From Aquabacterium sp. A3 (GTDB lineage Bacteria; Pseudomonadota; Gammaproteobacteria; Burkholderiales; Burkholderiaceae_C), in contig NZ_JBBPEV010000002.1 of the NCBI RefSeq assembly GCF_038069945.1, positions 273,269-337,268 on the forward strand: a stretch of 64,000 nucleotides of DNA, given 5' to 3'. Below the pieces are notes generated by a model. That model made no database searches. It was not told where the DNA came from and was given only the letters and a program-made list of their open reading frames with translations. Positions 18,357 to 28,037 of this stretch are shown one piece after another. The position numbers were made by a program, and so were the translations under genes. The first letter of the stretch is position 1; the number at the start of each line of letters is the position of its first letter.

Positions 18357-19847
18357 TTGAATTCGGACATGCCTGCTTTTCTGGTCCTGCTGCTCATCGT
18401 CGCGCTGATGGCCGGCGGCCTTTTGTTCTGGCTGCTGCGCCGGCCTGTGCAGACGGGTGCGCGCGCCAGCACGGGTTTTGCGGCGTCCTACAACAGCGAG
18501 CAAGACACCATCCCCATGACCCGCGGGGCCGATGGCGCCTGGCACGGCTGGGAGGACGACGAGGACGACCAGGGGCCTGCGACAGTGCTCTCCTACATGG
18601 ACGTGCCCGACAATCAACGCCCCTCGTCGGCCCCGGCCACACCGCCTGCGGAGGACCCGCCGCCGCTGTCGGGTGATGACCCCGGCTGGCAGCGCATCCG
18701 CAGCGCGCTGGGCACCCTCAGCGATGGCCCGCTGGACCAGGCCTGGGCGGCACTCCAAGGATTTTTGCCTGAGCCTGCCCAGCGCGAAGTGGCCATGGAC
18801 ACCATGGAGCGCATCGCTTTGGCGTACGAGCGCGAACAGCGCTATGACCGCGCCCGGGATGTGTATGAGCACATGGCCGACATCGACCCTCAGTGGCGCC
18901 AGGTCAAGCTGCGTCTGATGCGGGCGCGGGGTCTGGCCCAGGCCGCCACGGTCAACACCTGGGGCACCGTGCCCCCTCGGCCCATGCCCAAGGTCACCAT
19001 GGGGCAGTTGGGCAAGTATGTGCTGGTGCGACAGATCGGGCGGGGTGCCATGGGCGCGGTGTACCTGGGGCACGATCCGGCCATCGACCGTGAAGTGGCC
19101 CTCAAGACCATGGCCCTGGCGCAAGAGTTTTCGGGCGATGACCTGGCCGATGCCCGCGCCCGTTTTTTGCGCGAGGCGGAGATGGCCGGGCGTCTGCAGC
19201 ATCCCGACATCGTCAGCATCCTGGACGCAGGCGAGGTGGACGGCCTGGCCTACATCGCCATGGAAATGGTCGAAGGCACCGACCTGTCTGCACATGCCCG
19301 CCCCGGCAGTTTGCTGCCCTTGGCCCAGTTGCTGCCCGTCGTGGCCCGCGTGGCCGAGGCGCTGGCGTATGCCCACACCCGGGGGGTCACCCACCGCGAC
19401 ATCAAGCCCGCCAACGTCATGGTCGATCTGGCGCACGACACCGTCAAGGTCATGGACTTTGGTGTGGCGCGTGTGGCAGACGCCGCCCGCACCCGCACCG
19501 GGGTGGTGCTGGGCACGCCCACGTTCATGTCGCCCGAACAACTGTCAGGGCAGCCCATCGACGGGCGCAGCGACCTCTACTCACTGGGCGTCACACTCTT
19601 TTTGCTGCTGACGGGGCAACTGCCTTATGCCAGCGACAACATGGCCGCCCTGATGCGCGCCATCGGACAGGACACGCCGCCCAATGTGTGCACCTTGCGG
19701 CCCGAGCTGCCAGCGGCGTTGGGCGACATCGTGGCACTGGCTTTGCAAAAGCACCCAGGAACCCGCTATCAGGATGGCCGGGAGATGGCTGAAGATCTGC
19801 GCCGTGTGGCCCAGGATCTGCCAACCCCAGACATTCCCTTGGCGTGA
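18357..19847 (+). CDS. Membrane-anchored Ser/Thr protein kinase (Hanks type)
   Basis: A 496-residue protein (492 if the ATG at 18369 is used; the TTG at 18357 has the better-spaced AGGGG). One transmembrane helix (PAFLVLLLIVALMAGGLLFWLL) is followed by an acidic linker and a short TPR-like segment (RIALAYEREQRYDRARDVYEHM, about 150-172). The kinase domain (about 215-480) has GRGAMGAVYLG, a VALKTM lysine, HRDIKPANVMV, MDFGVARV and GTPTFMSPEQL, all catalytic elements. Having the anchor at the N-terminus and the kinase at the C-terminus reverses the common PknB order. It is first in an operon with a PP2C phosphatase and an FHA protein. Confidence 0.92.
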   Translation: MNSDMPAFLVLLLIVALMAGGLLFWLLRRPVQTGARASTGFAASYNSEQDTIPMTRGADGAWHGWEDDEDDQGPATVLSYMDVPDNQRPSSAPATPPAEDPPPLSGDDPGWQRIRSALGTLSDGPLDQAWAALQGFLPEPAQREVAMDTMERIALAYEREQRYDRARDVYEHMADIDPQWRQVKLRLMRARGLAQAATVNTWGTVPPRPMPKVTMGQLGKYVLVRQIGRGAMGAVYLGHDPAIDREVALKTMALAQEFSGDDLADARARFLREAEMAGRLQHPDIVSILDAGEVDGLAYIAMEMVEGTDLSAHARPGSLLPLAQLLPVVARVAEALAYAHTRGVTHRDIKPANVMVDLAHDTVKVMDFGVARVADAARTRTGVVLGTPTFMSPEQLSGQPIDGRSDLYSLGVTLFLLLTGQLPYASDNMAALMRAIGQDTPPNVCTLRPELPAALGDIVALALQKHPGTRYQDGREMAEDLRRVAQDLPTPDIPLA

Positions 19848-19898
19848 GGCCTGTCCACTCCGCGTTCGAAGCGTCCAATCCAATAGACAATCTGCCCC

Positions 19899-20696
19899 AT
19901 GGACTTCGAGTTCTACAGTCAGACCGATACCGGTCGCGTGCGCAGCAACAACGAGGACTCCGTGGCCCTGGACGAGGCCCACGGTGTGGCGGTGCTGGCT
20001 GACGGCATGGGGGGCTACGCCGCCGGTGAGGTGGCCAGCGGCATGGCCTGCGATTTCATCCGTGCGGAGCTGGGGCGTTGGCTGGGTGAGGCCTCGGTGG
20101 CCGCCACCGATGGCGATGTGCGCCGTGCCATGGACATCTGCGTGGACAACGCCAACCGGGCCATTTTTGGCGCGGCCAGCTCCAACCCCACCTACGCCGG
20201 CATGGGCACCACCCTGGTGCTGGGTGTGTTTCGCTCGGGCCGTCTGCTGATGGGGCACATCGGTGACTCTCGCGCCTACCGCTGGCGCGACGGCGTGTTG
20301 CAGCAGATCACCAAAGACCATTCGTTACTGCAAGAGCAGATCGATGCTGGCATCCTCACGCCCGAGCAAGCCCAATACTCGGCCAACAAGAACCTGGTCA
20401 CGCGCGCCCTGGGCGTGGAAGATGTCGTGCTGCTGGAAAGCCATCAGCACGACCTCGTGCATGGCGACGTCATCCTCATGTGTTCTGATGGCCTGTCCGA
20501 CATGCTGACCGACCCCGAGATCGCTGGTGTCCTGGCCGCCTACCCCCACAGCCTGCCCGAGATGGGCGAGGCGCTGGTGTCGGCCGCCAATGAGGCCGGC
20601 GGTCGGGATAACATAGCTGTTGTGCTGGTGCGAGCTCAGGGAGACGCCGACCCCGCACCCCGGTCATGGTGGCCCTTCAAGCGCCTGGGCGGCTGA
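19899..20696 (+). CDS. PP2C-type Ser/Thr protein phosphatase
   Basis: A 265-residue cytoplasmic phosphatase. Metal-binding and family motifs are SDTGxVRxxNED-like (TDTGRVRSNNEDS, residues about 9-21), VAVLADGMGGYAAGEVAS, MGTTLVLGVF, GHIGDSRAYRW, DHSLLQEQI, LVTRALGV, CSDGLSDML and GGRDNIAVVLV. It would reverse phosphorylation by the kinase encoded 51 bases upstream. The FHA gene starts 44 bases downstream. Confidence 0.94.
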   Translation: MDFEFYSQTDTGRVRSNNEDSVALDEAHGVAVLADGMGGYAAGEVASGMACDFIRAELGRWLGEASVAATDGDVRRAMDICVDNANRAIFGAASSNPTYAGMGTTLVLGVFRSGRLLMGHIGDSRAYRWRDGVLQQITKDHSLLQEQIDAGILTPEQAQYSANKNLVTRALGVEDVVLLESHQHDLVHGDVILMCSDGLSDMLTDPEIAGVLAAYPHSLPEMGEALVSAANEAGGRDNIAVVLVRAQGDADPAPRSWWPFKRLGG

Positions 20697-20740
20697 ACAA
20701 GAACATCACAAGCATCACCGAGCCAAAAAAGAGGTTCCGC

Positions 20741-21454
20741 ATGGGAAAACTGGTCGTTTCACTCGATGGGGTCGTCATCAAGGAGGTGCAGGTCACCAAA
20801 GACCGCACCTCGCTGGGCCGACGGCCCTACAACGACATCGTGATCGACAACCTGGCGGTCAGCGGTGAGCATGCGGTGCTGCAGATGGTGGGCAGCGATG
20901 TGTTCATCGAAGACCTCAACAGCACCAACGGCACGTACATCAACGGCAAGGCCGTCAAAAAACAACTGCTGGCGCACAACGACACGATCGAAATCGGCAA
21001 GTACAAGATCAAGTACCTGCTTGACGAGGTGCCCGACTATGAAAAGACCATGATCATGCGGCCGGGCAGCATGCCGCCGCCCGTGTCGGCGCCGGCCTCG
21101 GCTGGCAGCCGTCCAGCGGGGGCACCGGCCACGGGCTTTGGCAGCACGCTCACGGGCGGCTTGGGCACGGGCTTTGGTGGCCTGCCCTCCCAGACCTCGG
21201 CGTCCATCAAGGTGCTCAATGGGGCTGCTGCGGGCCGCGAAGTCATGTTGACCAAGGTGGTCACCACCGTGGGCAAGCCTGGTGTGCAGGTGGCCTCCAT
21301 CACCAAACGGCCTGGAGGCTATGTGTTTGCCCACGTGGAAGGCACATCGCGCCCCACCGTGAACGGCCAGTCGGTGGAAGGTGACCCGGTGCAACTCAAG
21401 AGCGGCGACGTCATCGAGTTGGCTGGCACCCAGATGCAGTTCGTGCAGGCTTGA
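20741..21454 (+). CDS. Protein with two FHA-like domains
   Basis: A 237-residue protein. FHA domain 1 (about residues 1-98) has TSLGRRPYNDIVIDNLAVSG, EHAVLQ and LNSTNGTYINGK, the phosphothreonine-binding residues. A Pro/Ala/Gly-rich linker (about 115-160) leads to a second, weaker FHA-like module (SIKVLNGAAAGREVMLTK to LKSGDVIELAGTQMQFV). The ATG at 20741 has GAGG 6 bases upstream. It is the likely phospho-reader for the kinase/phosphatase pair in the same operon. Confidence 0.9.
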   Translation: MGKLVVSLDGVVIKEVQVTKDRTSLGRRPYNDIVIDNLAVSGEHAVLQMVGSDVFIEDLNSTNGTYINGKAVKKQLLAHNDTIEIGKYKIKYLLDEVPDYEKTMIMRPGSMPPPVSAPASAGSRPAGAPATGFGSTLTGGLGTGFGGLPSQTSASIKVLNGAAAGREVMLTKVVTTVGKPGVQVASITKRPGGYVFAHVEGTSRPTVNGQSVEGDPVQLKSGDVIELAGTQMQFVQA

Positions 21455-21473
21455 GCCATTTGCCGGAGCCTCC

Positions 21474-22286
21474 GTGATACGCGTCCTGGGTTGCTCCGGT
21501 TCCATCGCGGCCCGCTGTCACACCACGGCATTTCTGCTGGACGACGACATCCTGATCGACGCCGGCAGCGGTGTGGGCGAACTGCGGCTGGACGAGCTGG
21601 CACGCATCGACCACATCCTGATCACGCACAGCCACCTGGATCACGTGCTGTCCATCCCGCTGCTGGCCGACAGTGTGATCAAGCTGCGCATGGGCGGCGG
21701 TGGGCCCCAGACCCTGCGGCCCATCCACGTGCACGCCTTGCCGGAAACCCTGCAGGCCCTGCGCGACCACCTGTTCAACGGGGTGATCTGGCCAGACTTC
21801 ACCCGCCTGCCCAGTGCCAGCCACCCAGTGTTGGTGCTGCATGAACTGGCGCTGGGGCAGACCCTGCGCTTTCCAGCCCGTGGAGGGCTGGACGAGCGTG
21901 CGGTGCACGTGCTGCCCGCCGCCCACACCGTGCCCGCCGTGGGCTACGCGGTGGACACGCCCCAGGGCTGGTGGGTGTTCACCGGCGACACTGGCCCCAA
22001 CCCGGCCTTGTGGCAGGCCCTGAATGGCCAACGCATTGCCCAGTTGGTGATTGAAACCGCCTTTGGCGACGAAGAAGCCCACCTGGCCATGATCAGCGGC
22101 CACCTGGCCCCGCAGACCCTGGCCCGCGAGCTGGCCCAACTGGACGGCGAAGTCAGCGTCTACATCACCCACCCCAAGCCCGGCGAGGTGCCTGCCGTGC
22201 TCTCGCAGATCCGCGCGCTGGACAGCCGCCACCGCATCGAGCCGCTGCGCGAGGGGCAGCGGTTTCATGTGCCGGCCGAAGGCTGA
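21474..22286 (+). CDS. Metallo-beta-lactamase-fold phosphodiesterase (class II cyclic-nucleotide PDE-like)
   Basis: A 270-residue protein starting at GTG 21474 with GGAG upstream. It shows MIRVLGCSGSIAARCHTTAF, a metal-binding THSHLDHVLSIPLLADS, HVLPAAHTVPAVGYAVDT, WWVFTGDTGPNPALW and a C-terminal SVYITHPKPGE. This is the arrangement of class II 3',5'-cyclic-nucleotide phosphodiesterases rather than of hydrolytic beta-lactamases. It starts 19 bases after the FHA gene, so phosphosignalling and cyclic-nucleotide turnover appear to share an operon. Other MBL-fold activities cannot be excluded. Confidence 0.82.
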   Translation: MIRVLGCSGSIAARCHTTAFLLDDDILIDAGSGVGELRLDELARIDHILITHSHLDHVLSIPLLADSVIKLRMGGGGPQTLRPIHVHALPETLQALRDHLFNGVIWPDFTRLPSASHPVLVLHELALGQTLRFPARGGLDERAVHVLPAAHTVPAVGYAVDTPQGWWVFTGDTGPNPALWQALNGQRIAQLVIETAFGDEEAHLAMISGHLAPQTLARELAQLDGEVSVYITHPKPGEVPAVLSQIRALDSRHRIEPLREGQRFHVPAEG

Positions 22287-22423: not shown

Positions 22424-22440
22424 CTGGCACGGCGCCTGCA
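22424..22440 (+). promoter_or_regulatory. Sigma-54 (RpoN) promoter of pilin gene 1
   Basis: CTGGCACGGCGCCTGCA matches the -24/-12 consensus YTGGCACGNNNNTTGCW at all but one base, with exact GG-to-GC spacing. The start would be about 22451, leaving a leader of about 68 bases before the pilin ATG. Type IV major pilin genes are often sigma-54/PilR-controlled. Confidence 0.72.
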
Positions 22441-22518
22441 CCATGTTCATCGCACGGCGGTGACGCATCACCGCCTCCCTGTTCCAGTAGACGGGCCTGG
22501 CGCCCAGAGGAGTTGATG

Positions 22519-23013
22519 ATGAAGCAAGTGCAAAAGGGCTTTACCCTGATCGAACTGATGATCGTCGTGGCGATCATCGGCATTTTGGCGGCTGTGGCGA
22601 TTCCGCAGTATCAGAACTACGTGGCGAAGTCGCAGGTGTCCCGCGTGATGGGCGAAACCGGTTCGCTGAAAACAGCGGTTGAAACCTGCATGCTGGATGG
22701 CCTTGCCGAGGCAGATTGCCAACTGGGCGCCACGGTCAGCAACTTGCTGGGTGAAGGTGGTGGCGGTGACGCCGGTGGTGACGCCGGTGGTGGCGGTGGT
22801 GGCGGTGGCGTGGACACTGGCGTGGCCGGCCTTGTGGTTACCTATGACCTGGACGCAGGCACAGCCAGCATTGAAGCCTCCTTCGGTGGTAATGCCGCCT
22901 CACCGCTGCGTGAGCAGTCCCTGACATGGGCGCGCACTGCTGAAGGCGCCTGGGGTTGTACAACCACCGTAGAAGCCCAGTTCCGTCCGGCTGGCTGTGG
23001 TGCTGTCCAGTAA
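22519..23013 (+). CDS. Type IV pilin (PilA/PilE-like) with glycine-rich insert
   Basis: A 164-residue prepilin. The leader MKQVQKG is cleaved before Phe8 of [16 protein letters not shown]; Glu12 is the conserved Glu5 of the mature protein. The start at 22519 has AGGAG 6 bases upstream; an in-frame ATG lies directly before it. Residues 78-97 are nearly all Gly with Asp and Ala. Four Cys occur in two pairs: [11 protein letters not shown] before the glycine run and WGC...PAGC near the end (likely the D-region disulfide). A sigma-54 promoter precedes it and a strong terminator follows, so it is probably the highly expressed major pilin. Confidence 0.93.
22750..22809 (+). repeat. Glycine-coding GGT/GGC low-complexity tract in pilin 1
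   Basis: About 60 bases made mainly of GGTGGC, GGTGAC and GGTGGT triplet pairs encode the Gly/Asp/Ala run at residues 78-97. All changes by multiples of three would keep frame, so length variation by slippage is possible. Confidence 0.8.
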
Positions 23014-23085
23014 CTTTAGATCGCCAACGTTCTAACGACCCTGCACTCCCGATGATCGTGTGACGCAGATCATCGGGGGCGCGGA

Positions 23086-23115
23086 AAAAAACGCCCCTCT
23101 CCAGGGGCGTTTTTG
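23086..23115. terminator. Strong terminator after pilin 1
   Basis: An A-run, then ACGCCCCT, a CTCC loop, AGGGGCGT and a T-run. It is U-tailed on the + strand and A-flanked, so it may work in both directions. It ends just before the next gene. Confidence 0.88.
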
Positions 23116-23147
23116 TTGAGATGCACCGCCTGTTGTGGAGGCAAGTC

Positions 23148-24350
23148 ATGGCCATCGGCATCAAACGATTCGTCGTCGTTTCGTTGATTGTCTTGCCGGT
23201 GTTGGCGCTGGCGGCCTTGGTGGATGTCTGGGTCAAGGACCAACATGCGGTACTTCGATTCATCTATCCGCTGGAAGCAGCGCTGCTCAAAACACAGGTT
23301 CGTTGTTCGGCACATGCACCGGGCTGGCTGAGGGATATTCCGCCCCTGGCGATGAATGTATTTGGCGCGTTGGCAGGGCAGGTGGCCTATCGTTCGCCGG
23401 ATGGCCAAATTCATCACTGTGAACATGGATGGGCCGGAGGCCTGTTTCGGTCTCCCGCCGTGTCGGCAGAGACCCGGTTTCGCTATGCGAGCCTGACCAA
23501 GTTGCTCACCGCAGATTCTGTGCTGCGTCGAGTGCAGTCCGGGAGTCACCACCTGAGTGATCGTTTGGTTGAGCTTGTGCCCGAATGGCGTTCAACCATT
23601 GATGCCCGTGTGGCCGACATCACGATTGAGCAACTGTTGCGTCATCGCGCGGGCTTTGATCGCATGCGGAGCCTCGATCCGATGACCATTCACAAGACAA
23701 AGCCTTGGTGCCCTGGTGATTTGTCTCGCGCGGGCGATCTTCGCCTGGATTTTGACCCAGGTAGTCGCAGTGCGTACGCGAATCTGGGTTACTGCATGCT
23801 CGGTGTATGGCTGCAGCGCGTCGAGGGGGTGTCTTACCGAGCGCTGATGGAAAGAGATCACGGCCTGCAGGCCCGTGGCATGCGTTTCATCGATGGGCCG
23901 TACTTGGCAGACGAAGTGCGGTACGACTTTCGCAACAGTTCTTTTTACGCAGAGAACTACCACCGGTATTTTGATTTTCAGGCCTTGTCTTCATCGGCAG
24001 GGCTGTCTGGATCTGCGGTGGCCATGGCGGGGCTTCTGGCTGATCTGATCCATCGGCAGCCACTGAACATCTTGTCGAAGGATGACGCACAGTGCAACGC
24101 CCACGAGATATTGTCCTGCCGGTCACTTGGCGCGATGGTGTCGCGCTGGTCAGGCAGCCCTTGGGTCATCCACAGCCACGGCGGTACCTTGTATGGGGCG
24201 TCGGCCCAGGCCCTGATGGACAACGATGGCGGTGTATTGGTGATGCTTGGAAATGGCATGCCGTCTGATTGGAATCAGGCCAGTCATGAGTTTCTTTCGA
24301 GTGTTCACGAGTTGTATCGATGGCATCGAAAGCCGCCGAAAAGCTCATGA
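23148..24350 (+). CDS. Serine hydrolase, beta-lactamase/penicillin-binding-protein family
   Basis: A 400-residue protein with an N-terminal hydrophobic signal or anchor (FVVVSLIVLPVLALAALVDVWV). The class C/esterase-type active site is complete: SLTK with Ser115 and Lys118, YANLGY with Tyr210, and HGGTLYGAS near the end in place of KTG. The ATG at 23148 has GGAGG 6 bases upstream; an earlier ATG at 23121 abuts the terminator and is unlikely. It lies between two pilin genes and directly before an acyltransferase gene. The codon choice looks less GC-rich than in the flanking core genes. Possible roles are de-acylation or peptide or ester cleavage at the envelope; the substrate is unknown. Confidence 0.86.
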   Translation: MAIGIKRFVVVSLIVLPVLALAALVDVWVKDQHAVLRFIYPLEAALLKTQVRCSAHAPGWLRDIPPLAMNVFGALAGQVAYRSPDGQIHHCEHGWAGGLFRSPAVSAETRFRYASLTKLLTADSVLRRVQSGSHHLSDRLVELVPEWRSTIDARVADITIEQLLRHRAGFDRMRSLDPMTIHKTKPWCPGDLSRAGDLRLDFDPGSRSAYANLGYCMLGVWLQRVEGVSYRALMERDHGLQARGMRFIDGPYLADEVRYDFRNSSFYAENYHRYFDFQALSSSAGLSGSAVAMAGLLADLIHRQPLNILSKDDAQCNAHEILSCRSLGAMVSRWSGSPWVIHSHGGTLYGASAQALMDNDGGVLVMLGNGMPSDWNQASHEFLSSVHELYRWHRKPPKSS

Positions 24351-24359
24351 GGCCCTGAC

Positions 24360-25358
24360 ATGTCCATGCCCTACAACCCTGCTCTGGATGGGATTCGCGC
24401 GCTGGCCGCCATCACGGTGGCGGCGATACATGCGCGTGCGCCTGGCCTGACCGCAGGCTTCTTTGGCGTCGATGTGTTTTTTGTGCTCTCCGGTTACCTG
24501 ATCACGCGGCTGTTGTGGCTGGAGCATCAAGCCACCCATACCGTGGATTGGCGATCGTTCATGCGTCGTCGATGGGCACGTCTGTGGCCGGCATTGGTTG
24601 TTTTTCTTTTGGTCTATTTGGCCGTGGCCCCTTGGTTGTGGCCTTCGATTCCGTTGGCCAAGCACATGCAGGATGCGGGGCTCACTGCGGTGTATGTCGT
24701 GAACTGGTCTCCCTCATGGGGTGGTGGCGTTTCTGTGCTGGGACATGTCTGGAGCCTGGCGGTGGAGATGCAGTTTTATGCGGTCTGGCCCCTGCTTTTC
24801 GTTCTATTGATGAAGCTGCCCAGACGTACGCTGCTGCCATCGCTGCTGGTGTTGTACGTCGCATCCACGGCGTGGCGGTGGTGGGGGGCCGAGCATCTGC
24901 CGCGTTTGTGGGATGTTTACGTCAGAACCGACATGCATTGCAGTGGCTTGCTGTTGGGTTGCATGTTGGGTGTTTGGAATCGACGACTGCCACAAGCGTG
25001 GGCATGGCCTGGTTTGGTGATTCTGGGGCTTGCCATGACGTTCTTCAGCTCAGCGTGGTTGCCAACAGTGCAATACGGTTTCACTGTCGCTGAGCTTGGG
25101 GCGGCCATGCTGTTGATGGCCCGACCCCCTTGGCTTGGGGTGCCGTGGCTGGCTTGGGTGGGACGTATGTCTTATGGCTTGTATTTGTGGCACTACCTCA
25201 TCATGGTGAATCTTCGCGACAAGCAGGATGCCGATTGGCGAATCACCCTGCTCATTGGTTTGGCGGGTGGTCTGGTCGCGGCGACCATCAGCCATCACTT
25301 GATCGAGCGCAGGTTTCATCGCTCGGCATTTGAAAGAGCCGCCCCTGTGATGGGGTGA
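24360..25358 (+). CDS. Membrane acyltransferase (acyltransferase 3 / OafA family)
   Basis: A 332-residue integral membrane protein, with about ten hydrophobic segments. The acyltransferase-3 N-terminus is clear: [17 protein letters not shown] with the catalytic His near residue 22, then [20 protein letters not shown]. The motif [16 protein letters not shown] is also typical, as is [13 protein letters not shown] near the end. Such enzymes O-acetylate surface sugars or peptidoglycan. The gene starts 9 bases after the serine hydrolase stop and is followed by a second pilin gene. That position suggests modification of pilin-linked or surface glycans. The soluble SGNH domain found in some relatives is absent. 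Confidence 0.9.
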
Positions 25359-25395
25359 TATCAAGCGATGTTTTTCAGGCAGTAAGGAGCATCAA

Positions 25396-25830
25396 ATGTC
25401 TCAACGTGGCTTTACCTTGATTGAGTTGATGATTGTTGTGGCGATCATCGGCATCCTTGCGGCAGCAGCCATTCCGGCCTACCAGGGGTACATCGCCCGG
25501 GCCCAGGTCGCCGCTGCGTTCTCTGATGTGAGTGCAGGACGAACCCTCTATGAAAGTGCTGTCAGCGAAGGCCGCGAGACGGCGTACTACACCAATGCGA
25601 ACATGGGGGTCGTCGCCAGTTCTGCTCATTGCTCGGCCATCACGGTGAATGCGCCGTCTGACGATGATCCGATGGTGGCGTTGAGGTGCACGCTCAACGG
25701 AAGTGGGCCGGTGCGCGGCGCTCAGGTCAATTTGAACCGGTCGGCCGTGGGCGGCTGGTCATGCACGGTCAGCAACCGTCCTGCCAGTTGGTCGTCTAGC
25801 TACCTGCCCAAAGGATGCAGCGAAGGCTAA
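25396..25830 (+). CDS. Second type IV pilin / pilin-like protein
   Basis: A 144-residue prepilin with the very short leader MSQRG before [22 protein letters not shown]. Glu at mature position 5 is present. Cys pairs are at SAHC...LRC and WSC...PKGC, the last bounding a D-region loop. An AAGGAG-type ribosome site precedes the start. It differs from pilin 1 in lacking the glycine insert and shares only the N-terminal helix closely, so it may be an alternative major pilin or a minor pilin. Confidence 0.92.
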
Positions 25831-25929
25831 GTGCGTCGCTGTGTTTTCAAGTGTGGCATTGACGTCCGAGGCATCGTCGTTCAGCTGAGTTGCCTTTTTC
25901 CGGGCATTTGAGGCGCACTAAACCGGGCT

Positions 25930-25960
25930 TTGATGGCGGAGCCCGTGCCCACGCTAAAAT
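25930..25960 (+). promoter_or_regulatory. Candidate tkt promoter
   Basis: TTGATG (25930-25935) and TAAAAT (25955-25960) are 19 bases apart, longer than ideal, about 30 bases before the tkt ATG. The -10 is good and the overall match modest. Confidence 0.4.
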
Positions 25961-25991
25961 CAGCGGTTTCCCTCAGCCGCCTGCCCGCACC

Positions 25992-28037
25992 ATGTCCCAC
26001 CCCACCAAGAACATCACTGCCATGGCCAACGCCATCCGTGCGCTGGCCATGGACGCCGTCCAGCAAGCCAATTCCGGTCACCCCGGGGCGCCGATGGGCA
26101 TGGCCGACATGGCAGTGGCCCTGTGGAGCCGTCATCTGCGCCACCACCCCGCGCAGCCGCAATGGTTCGACCGCGACCGCTTCGTGCTGTCCAACGGTCA
26201 CGCCTCGATGCTGATCTACGCGCTGCTGCACCTGACGGGCTATGAGCTGTCCATCGACGACCTGAAGGCCTTCCGCCAGATGCACAGCAAGACGCCGGGC
26301 CACCCTGAGGTGGGCATCACCCCCGGTGTGGAGACGACCACGGGCCCGCTGGGGCAGGGCATCACCAACGCGGTGGGCTTTGCGCTGGCCGAGAAGATGC
26401 TGGCCACCGAGTTCAATCGCCCTGGCCACGACATCGTCAACCACCACACGTACGTGTTCATGGGCGATGGCTGCCTGATGGAAGGCATCAGCCACGAGGC
26501 CGTGGCCCTGGCCGGTGCCTGGAAGCTGAACAAGCTCATCGCGCTGTACGACGACAACGGCATCTCGATCGATGGTCAGGTCACCCCCTGGTTCATCGAC
26601 AACACGGCGCAGCGTTTCGAGGCCTGTGGCTGGAACGTGATCGGCCCGGTGGATGGCCATGATGTGGACGCCGTGGACGGCGCCATCGTCAAGGCCAAGC
26701 TGTCTTCTGACAAGCCCACGCTGATCATCTGCAAGACCGCCATCGGAAAGGGCTCGCCCAACCGCGCCAACACGGCCAAGGCCCACGGCGAGCCGCTGGG
26801 TGGCGACGAGATCAAGCTCACGCGCGAGGCCATTGGCTGGGCGCATGAGCCCTTCGTGATCCCCGAAGAGGTCTATGGCGACTGGAACGCCAAGGCCGAT
26901 GGCGAGCAACTGGTGGCCGACTGGAACCAGCGCTTCGAGGCCTACAAGGCCTTGTTCCCCGCTGAAGCCGCCGAGTTCGAGCGCCGCATGAAGGGCGACC
27001 TGCCCGCCAACTTCGCCGAGATCGCCGTGCAGGCCGTGGCCACTGCGCACGAAAAGGCCGAGACCGTGGCCAGCCGCAAGGCCAGCCAGATCGCGCTGGA
27101 GTTCTTCACCGCCGCCATCCCTGAAATGCTGGGCGGCTCGGCCGACCTGACCGGCTCGAACCTGACCAACACCAAGAGCACCCCCGCTTTCCGCGTGGGC
27201 GACGATGGCAAGGTCGTGACCACCGACGGCAAGCCTGGCCGCCACATCAACTACGGTGTGCGCGAGTTCGGCATGGCCGCCATCATGAACGGCGTGGCCC
27301 TGCACGGTGGCTACATCCCTTACGCCGGCACCTTCCTCACGTTCAGCGACTACAGCCGCAACGCCATCCGCATGGCCGCGCTGATGAAGCAACGCGTGAT
27401 CCATGTGTTCACCCACGACTCCATCGGCTTGGGCGAAGACGGCCCCACGCACCAGTCGGTCGAACACGCCGCCAGCCTGCGTCTGATCCCGGGTCTGGAT
27501 GTCTGGCGCCCGGCCGACACGGCCGAAACCGCCGTGGCCTGGACCATGGCCCTGGCCAACAAGCACCGCCCCTCGGCACTGCTGCTGTCGCGTCAGAACC
27601 TGCCTTACGCGCCCAAGACCGACGCCGATGTGATGACGCAAGGCGCCTACGTGCTGGCCGAGCCCGCCGAGGTGGGCCTGAAGAAGAAGGCCGTGGCCGT
27701 GATCATCGCCACCGGCTCTGAAGTGCAATTGGCCCTGCATGCGCAAGCCGAGTTGGCCAAGCGTGGTGTGCCCGTGCGCGTGGTCTCCATGCCCTCGACC
27801 ACCGTGTTCGACCGCCAGGACGTGGCCTACAAGAAGGCCGTGCTGCCGCCCAAGCTGCCCCGCGTGGCCGTGGAGGCTGGTGTGACCGACTTCTGGTGGA
27901 AGTACGGCGTGGATGCCGTGGTCGGCATCGACACCTACGGCGAGTCGGCCCCGGCTGGCGTGCTGTTCAAGCACTTTGGCTTCACCCCCGAGAACGTGGT
28001 GGCCACGGTGCTGAAGGTGCTCAAGAACCGCGGCTGA
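25992..28037 (+). CDS. tkt: Transketolase
   Basis: A 681-residue protein, the normal length. It shows [44 protein letters not shown], the thiamine-diphosphate motif [24 protein letters not shown], and the pyrimidine-domain sequences [11 protein letters not shown] and [19 protein letters not shown]. It moves two-carbon units in the pentose phosphate or Calvin pathways. The ATG at 25992 fits family starts; the frame is open 100 bases further upstream over the promoter. gap follows. Confidence 0.97.

What the first reader, a model, noticed from the sequence alone, without database searches (positions are those of the whole stretch)
22424..25830. Type IV pilin island: pilin, serine hydrolase, acyltransferase, pilin
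A sigma-54-driven pilin and a second pilin flank a beta-lactamase-fold serine hydrolase (SLTK/YAN intact) and an OafA-type acyltransferase, 9 bases apart. Both inner genes look less GC-rich than their surroundings. Known pilin-linked modifiers are usually glycosyl- or oligosaccharyl-transferases. A writer/eraser pair for acylation of pilin glycans or the local envelope is possible and I know of no described example. Function is inference.
Basis: partly seen in the sequence, partly recalled or inferred. Interest (0 to 1): 0.72.

Follow-up and report, generated by a model that had tools for sequence, protein, structure and literature searches.

The report
Pilin cassette with dedicated serine hydrolase
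This is a swappable cassette of genes built around a bacterial surface-fibre protein, and it carries a probably periplasmic enzyme, for which I found no description, that travels with such fibre genes in many bacteria and may modify the fibre protein chemically.

Summary
In detail: two type IV pilins flank an SxxK serine hydrolase (HYD) and an AT3 acyltransferase (AT), 9 nt apart, low in GC, behind a good sigma-54 site. It is a pilin-accessory cassette. In 33 congener loci examined the slot (MBL gene, pilA, variable cargo) is kept, the cargo differs, and none has HYD or AT. But the pair is not the unit; HYD is the core. All 42 relatives kept from a named-genome scan (17 distant ones dropped) have a pilin gene in the locus, 41 upstream on the same strand. 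AT is seen in 6 of these 42 plus the window, roughly one clade, and its close form was seen only beside HYD. HYD-linked pilins form a subfamily that includes the window's pilin 1 but no congener pilin, so pilin, HYD and AT probably arrived together. Most likely HYD is a membrane-anchored periplasmic acyl-hydrolase or transferase acting on the pilin or a group on it, with AT supplying acyl groups in one clade (works like DltE in the dlt operon). The chemistry is inferred; structure prediction could not be run.

The parts
22425..22440 (+). sigma-54-type -24/-12 element TGGCACGGCGCCTGCA before pilin 1
   Evidence: read; same pattern before pilA in 24 of 34 loci of the genus, window included
22519..23013 (+). 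type IV pilin (164 aa) of the subfamily that goes with HYD; Gly-rich insert in the middle
   Evidence: PF00114/PF07963; groups with 34 other HYD-linked pilins and 7 downstream pilins, SH-aLRT 98
23089..23115 (+). intrinsic terminator between pilin and hydrolase (AAACGCCCCTCTCCAGGGGCGTTT then T)
   Evidence: such a hairpin lies within 150 nt after the pilin in 33 of 34 loci, against 29 of 340 random stretches
23148..24350 (+). HYD: SxxK serine hydrolase, 400 aa, one N-terminal hydrophobic segment, catalytic domain probably periplasmic (mechanical ORF starts at 23121)
   Evidence: PF00144; hydrophobic segment residues 9-27; S, K, Y, N invariant in 39 of 39; six cysteines invariant
24360..25358 (+). 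AT: AT3-only (OafA-type) membrane acyltransferase, 332 aa, no fused SGNH domain found
   Evidence: PF01757, the only Pfam match; alignment A2
25396..25830 (+). second pilin (144 aa), of another subfamily
   Evidence: PF00114; outside the HYD-linked pilin group
21432..22286 (+). left boundary: MBL-fold hydrolase gene, fixed flank of the slot (start uncertain)
   Evidence: PF12706; match at E 0.001 in 40 of 42 genomes of the genus, own included, one of them (G015) too weak to count as the same gene
25890..28037 (+). right boundary: transketolase, fixed flank (the ORF is longer than the likely gene)
   Evidence: seen in 25 of 33 congener stretches

Best explanation
A horizontally exchanged pilin-accessory cassette. 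The sigma-54 promoter drives pilin 1; the terminator behind it keeps HYD and AT at a lower level. HYD sits in the inner membrane by one N-terminal helix, as the pilin does, with its Ser-Lys/Tyr-Asn catalytic domain in the periplasm, and acts on the pilin or on a group carried by it (ester or amide hydrolysis, or acyl transfer). In one clade an AT3 protein has been added that brings an acyl group across the membrane, so that HYD trims or places that acyl group: it works like DltE, an SxxK D-Ala esterase in an operon with an acylation machine. Shown: gene order, conservation, association with a pilin subfamily, catalytic residues, the AT-HYD linkage. Inferred: promoter and terminator function, periplasmic side, that the pilin is the substrate, the acyl chemistry, the role of AT.
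For: A pilin gene lies in 42 of 42 kept HYD loci, 41 with a same-strand pilin upstream (9-4544 nt; 23 within 200 nt), often beside pilB/pilC/pilD. The four other PF00144 matches of the window's genome show no pilin motif within 1.5 kb. The slot is variable in the genus. HYD-linked pilins form their own group. Among 298 Pseudomonadaceae genomes the five best-scoring pilins of the subfamily are followed directly by HYD, the next 25 loci returned are not. AT at 48% identity or more: 5 of 5 genomes and 4 of 4 have it beside HYD (three genomes are in both sets). HYD and AT diverge together (r 0.79, 22 pairs, 0 of 2000 permutations as high). DltE precedent.
Against: No biochemistry; no structure could be predicted. 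HYD and pilin distances correlate (r 0.30, 34 loci, 0 of 2000 permutations as high), but once PilB distance is removed only weakly (r 0.17, 165 of 2000 as high, 16 loci); HYD mostly follows its host (r 0.81 with PilB), so fine co-adaptation is not shown. The third motif of S12 enzymes is not kept: Q 21, H 15, R 2, K 1, then x-G, of 39. All 42 loci come from one scan with HYD's own patterns. Four of the five top pilins were part of the query alignment. The pilin motifs were chosen after looking at the sequences.
Confidence: 0.5

Rival explanations
1. HYD is the acyl transferase, not an eraser: AT exports the acyl group and HYD, through its Ser acyl-enzyme, puts it on the pilin or pilin glycan, the part played by the fused SGNH domain in AT3-SGNH proteins.
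For: AT is AT3-only with no SGNH domain found; AT lies directly behind HYD in every close case read, overlapping it by 4 nt in several; the review describes AT3 with fused SGNH domains; transesterases of this fold are among the solved relatives (3hlc and others).
Against: No AT in 36 of 42 HYD loci, so HYD must do something alone; AT3-only proteins are thought to work without a partner (IcaC is given as one such).
Confidence: 0.2
2. HYD is a peptidase or transpeptidase that trims or links the pilin chain (for example its C-terminal tail), and AT is an unrelated passenger for the envelope.
For: Best solved relatives by profile are an alkaline D-peptidase and DD-carboxypeptidases; in a sister subfamily 7 of 10 pilins near an ICMT-like gene end in Gly-Gly.
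Against: Tails of pilins in the window's subfamily vary freely in length and letters; AT of the close form was seen only next to HYD.
Confidence: 0.15
3. HYD is an assembly helper like TfpY/TfpZ, with catalysis incidental.
For: TfpZ sits in the same slot in congener L180, and probably L167 just under the cut-off; 7 HYD loci also hold a gene of cluster C10, whose one tested member is TfpZ.
Against: S, K, Y, N invariant in 39 of 39 relatives down to about 34% identity.
Confidence: 0.1
4. Ordinary cell-wall or lipid housekeeping enzymes that happen to lie by a pilin.
For: PF00144 and PF01757 are broad families; distant AT3 proteins are common in the genus (36 of 61 genomes), and the 9 such loci whose neighbours I looked at show no pilin within 1.5 kb.
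Against: Pilin in 42 of 42 kept loci across many genera; HYD and AT absent from 33 of 33 congener stretches at the same slot.
Confidence: 0.05

Closest known systems
Pilin-accessory cassettes of Pseudomonas aeruginosa (TfpO, TfpW, TfpX/Y/Z)
   Same: Accessory genes directly behind the major pilin, terminator between them, cargo differs between groups (PMC11841053, passages; here).
   Different: The known accessories are glycosyltransferases or TfpY-like proteins; the words hydrolase, acyltransferase, acetyl and lactamase do not occur in that paper's text.
DltE (Lactiplantibacillus plantarum) in the dlt operon
   Same: SxxK beta-lactamase-fold enzyme with an extracellular catalytic domain and altered further motifs, in an operon with an acylation machine; an esterase whose loss lowers net D-alanylation by about 70% (PMC10241514, passages).
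   Different: Acts on lipoteichoic acid; partner DltB is an MBOAT protein (recalled), not AT3; no pilin.
PglI (Neisseria)
   Same: AT3 protein that O-acetylates a pilin-linked glycan (PMC9558356, passages).
   Different: AT3 fused to SGNH; no SxxK hydrolase partner is mentioned in the passages seen; here AT is AT3-only and sits in the pilin cassette.
S12 / class C beta-lactamases and DD-carboxypeptidases
   Same: PF00144 match, SxxK and YxN.
   Different: Third motif lost, six family-wide cysteines, best NCBIfam score 37 bits against a cut-off of 266.

Membership tests
Pilin-accessory cassette | accessory gene behind a pilin on the same strand | tested here: met
   window; 41 of 42 HYD relatives
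Pilin-accessory cassette | Rho-independent terminator between pilin and accessory gene | tested here: met
   by sequence: 23089-23115; 33 of 34 loci of the genus
Pilin-accessory cassette | cargo varies between relatives at a fixed site | tested here: met
   33 congener stretches, 25 showing tkt, 5 with no cargo ORF
Pilin-accessory cassette | accessory changes pilin modification or piliation | not testable with these tools
   needs mutants
PF00144 (SxxK hydrolase) family | Pfam match over cut-off, SxxK and YxN | tested here: met
   77.9 bits, cut-off 27; 39 of 39
S12 DD-carboxypeptidase / class C beta-lactamase | third motif (K/H)(S/T)G | tested here: not met
   HGG in the window; Q 21, H 15, R 2, K 1 at the first place of 39
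S12 DD-carboxypeptidase / class C beta-lactamase | binds or cleaves beta-lactams or D-Ala-D-Ala | not testable with these tools
   needs purified protein
AT3 (OafA/YrhL) acyltransferase | PF01757 over cut-off | tested here: met
   121.5 bits, cut-off 31
PglI-type pilin-glycan O-acetyltransferase | AT3 fused to SGNH domain | tested here: not met
   332 aa, only PF01757 found
Dlt system (DltE-like) | operon with the other dlt genes | tested here: not met
   neighbours are pilin, AT3, pilin, tkt
TfpX/TfpZ | NF041437 match | tested here: not met
   no match for HYD or AT at E 0.001

The most novel reading that the evidence does not exclude
A whole superfamily of pilin-dedicated SxxK enzymes exists (HYD1 with the AKSQVSR-type pilins; HYD2 with an ICMT-like membrane methyltransferase and mostly Gly-Gly-tailed pilins; and an unrelated PF00144 hydrolase directly behind a Gly-Gly-tailed pilin in a congener): type IV pilins would be remodelled by acyl or C-terminal chemistry, not only by glycans, with an AT3 acyl supplier added in one clade.
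Probability: 0.3. Interest if true: 0.82.

Novelty: new variant of a known kind. Interest (0 to 1): 0.62.

Why it matters
The known P. aeruginosa pilin accessories either glycosylate the pilin, which helps evade pilus-binding phages, or help it assemble (PMC11841053, passages). A serine hydrolase kept next to pilins across Marinobacter, Pseudomonas, Psychrobacter, Acinetobacter, Thauera and others points to a further kind of pilin chemistry that is directly testable by intact-pilin mass spectrometry. The genus of the window also gives a natural set of different pilin cassettes at one genomic slot.

Tried and rejected
Structure prediction of HYD (alignment A1) was asked for 16 times; the machine was full each time, so no fold search was run. 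Beta-lactamase or DD-carboxypeptidase as function: set aside because the third motif is lost and scores lie far below cut-offs. Mobile element origin: no match to HYD in plasmids (E 1e-20) or phages (E 1e-10). Sample of the class (369 genomes): 32, the window's genome included, match A1 at E 1e-15, most over a part of the model. Of the 31 others I looked at the neighbours of the six with loci L188-L193, three of them over a wider stretch: only G340 has a pilin (sister subfamily); the other 25 genomes were not examined. So the family looks rare, but the class sample is no full test of the pilin link for distant relatives. Pilin-HYD co-divergence beyond host descent: not shown.

Literature: six searches aimed at a pilin-linked serine hydrolase, acyltransferase or accessory gene showed, by title and start of abstract, no paper on a pilin-linked serine hydrolase; on acyltransferases they led only to PglI (PMC1976384, PMC9558356). 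Most listed papers were not opened. One more search (two-pilin locus of P. stutzeri) did not help; one search was for DltE. The library is open-access papers only. Opened, passages only: PMC11841053, PMC9558356, PMC10241514. All others: search listing only.

Rows dropped: of the 59 loci I kept L075-L116 (42) and dropped L117-L133 (17; Verrucomicrobia, Planctomycetes, Dehalococcoidia, Kibdelosporangium, Mucilaginibacter; mostly short matches). 8 of those 17 also hold a prepilin-type motif somewhere in the locus, which I take as background without having tested it.
Full report
Observation. Pilin 1 is 22519-23013, the hydrolase (HYD) 23148-24350 (its mechanical ORF starts at 23121), the AT3 acyltransferase (AT) 24360-25358 and pilin 2 25396-25830, all on the + strand. 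The region is poorer in GC than the window (HYD+AT 0.579 against 0.653) and at third positions (0.63-0.69 against 0.81-0.91 in six neighbours; the S8 protease gene downstream is 0.71). The sigma-54 site is a good match, and its pattern stands before pilA in 24 of 34 loci of the genus. A terminator stands between pilin 1 and HYD.

The slot. The window lies on contig 2 of a 3.83 Mb genome. In the genus HYD and AT have no close relative: HYD matches 13 of 61 genomes (own included; 37 of the 61 are of the genus), the best other being partial at 27-33% identity; AT matches 36 of 61, best other 36-37%. The left neighbour MBL matches in 40 of 42 genomes of the genus (one match, G015, is too weak to count). 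From 33 congeners I took the stretch beyond MBL (the rest had short contigs, broken or no matches, or were left out). A pilin motif follows in 33 of 33; tkt is seen in 25 and not within the stretch in 8. Between pilin and tkt there is no ORF of 80 aa in 5, otherwise genes of very different kinds. I ran 20 of those ORFs through Pfam and 8 of the 20 also through NCBIfam: O-antigen ligase or PglL type (L154, L170), sulfatase fold (L172), glycosyltransferases (L175, L177), TfpZ (L180 over the cut-off, L167 just under it), a nucleotidyltransferase (L156), an unrelated PF00144 hydrolase (L158); several had no match. HYD and AT are found in none of the 33 (tblastn). This is the pilin-accessory cassette known from P. 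aeruginosa (PMC11841053, passages) at a fixed site, with the window carrying a different cargo.

HYD is a pilin-linked family. 195 proteins match HYD at E 0.001 among the 8000 candidates scored. One scan of named genomes gave 59 loci; I kept 42 and dropped 17 distant ones (see Tried and rejected). In all 42 a pilin gene lies in the locus, in 41 upstream on the same strand, 23 of them within 200 nt of the HYD ORF; the exception, L076, has a pilin downstream. Many are the major pilin locus, with pilB, pilC and pilD (clusters of 21, 19 and 19 members; one representative of each checked). Record titles name Pseudomonas, Halopseudomonas, Marinobacter, Psychrobacter, Acinetobacter, Alcanivorax, Microbulbifer, Cellvibrio, Rheinheimera, Thauera, Snodgrassella and others. 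The four other PF00144 matches of the window's own genome show no pilin motif within 1.5 kb.

Pilin subfamily. The pilins before HYD in the window and 34 relatives (the 7 Gly-Gly-type loci left out) are of one kind. Two motifs that I chose after looking at them: [KR][ASTG]Q[ACITV][STNG]R after the stem in 33 of 35, against 0 of 33 congener pilins, 0 of 7 of the sister subfamily and 11 of 26 downstream pilins; W-x-R...W-x-C in 35 of 35, against 3 of 33 congeners and 7 of 26 downstream. In a tree of 93 pilins they form one group with 7 downstream pilins (SH-aLRT 98); the window's pilin 1 is nearest to those of Halopseudomonas and P. songnenensis, not to its congeners (128 columns, quick method). 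So pilin and HYD probably came into this genome together. In 298 Pseudomonadaceae genomes, 44 have a pilin with E up to 1e-30 to this subfamily; of the 30 loci returned, the top 5 (243-249 bits) are followed directly by HYD and the other 25 (211 bits or less) are not (the two longest downstream ORFs tested). Four of those five were in the query alignment; the fifth (L082) was not, and scored 243.

AT. In this family AT is the add-on. It is seen in 6 of 42 loci and the window, which lie close together on the HYD tree (2 changes, against 6.7 in shuffles; one origin not excluded). In 17 HYD genomes searched whole, 5 have AT at E 2.3e-47 or better, each at the HYD locus; of the 12 others, 10 have no match at E 1e-20 and two have matches no better than 2.6e-32 (34-38% identity). 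In 298 Pseudomonadaceae genomes 9 have AT at E 1e-45: the 4 at 48-58% identity lie next to HYD and a pilin, the 5 at 40-42% show neither within 1.5 kb. Three genomes are in both sets. HYD and AT hits of the protein search share 19 contig lengths; I compared 52 HYD and 43 AT lengths, partly picked because they matched, and equal length suggests but does not prove the same contig. L082 has an AT with an internal deletion beside a whole HYD.

What HYD is. One hydrophobic segment at residues 9-27, then a domain with six invariant cysteines, which suggests the periplasm. The catalytic Ser, Lys, Tyr and Asn are invariant in 39 of 39, while the third motif is mostly Q/H-x-G. Nearest solved structures by profile are S12-type peptidases and esterases. 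The closest working model is DltE: an SxxK enzyme with an extracellular domain that is an esterase, not a carboxypeptidase, sits in the dlt operon, and whose loss lowers net D-alanylation by about 70% (PMC10241514, passages). Hence 'eraser' and 'writer helper' need not exclude each other.

Other cargo with HYD. HYD loci also hold TfpZ-type genes (7 in cluster C10), LtaS-like sulfatase-fold genes (7, C11), O-antigen-ligase-like genes (5 in C17 and some singletons) and ICMT-like genes (8, C9) (families checked on one representative per cluster and two singletons). In other loci HYD stands with pilins and no recognised modifier. What the loci share is the pilin, which is why I take the pilin, or something on it, as the likely substrate.

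Limits. All function is inferred from sequence. No structure could be made. HYD follows host descent (r 0.81 with PilB over 16 loci); HYD and pilin distances correlate at 0.30 over 34 loci, and beyond PilB at 0.17 (165 of 2000 permutations as high). The genome has O-antigen-ligase-family genes elsewhere (7 matches), so a glycan on the pilin is possible. Promoter and terminator are called from sequence only.

Noticed in passing
L108, L109, L111-L115, L270: Sister subfamily: pilin, then an ICMT-like membrane protein (PF04140: 24.9 bits, cut-off 24, in L270; just under it in L111), then an SxxK hydrolase. Of 10 pilins near this ICMT-like gene (also L116, and L250, where another pilin-like ORF lies between), 7 end in Gly-Gly after a G/A/T/S-rich tail; of the 35 pilins of the window's subfamily only L106 does, of 33 congener pilins only L158. 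Extra methylation of the pilin N-terminus or C-terminal tail chemistry are both possible.
   Followed up: partly
L158 1089-3107 (a congener): Pilin ending in a long GGTT repeat and Gly-Gly, followed directly by an unrelated PF00144 SxxK hydrolase (P0241) that none of the other 32 congener stretches has: possibly independent recruitment.
   Followed up: partly
L087, L091, L096, L097, L103, L105, L106; also L245, L251, L254, L261: LtaS-like sulfatase-fold genes in pilin cassettes, the last four without HYD (family tested on L106 only): candidate phosphoglycerol transferases for pilins.
   Followed up: no
L082 (Halopseudomonas pertucinogena): AT is shortened by an internal deletion while HYD and pilin are whole.
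   Followed up: no
window 22750-22815: Gly-rich stretch ([16 protein letters not shown]) inside pilin 1, the longest such insert among the 17 pilins aligned, perhaps a slippage-prone repeat.
   Followed up: no
window 18357-21454: Three genes before MBL look like a Ser/Thr kinase, a PP2C phosphatase and an FHA protein (read from sequence, no family search); the FHA gene is also next to MBL in L174.
   Followed up: no
L228, L229, L231, L232: AT3 proteins 40-42% identical to AT stand in a different, repeated gene order beside an ABC-transporter-like ORF (by eye), with no pilin within 1.5 kb.
   Followed up: no
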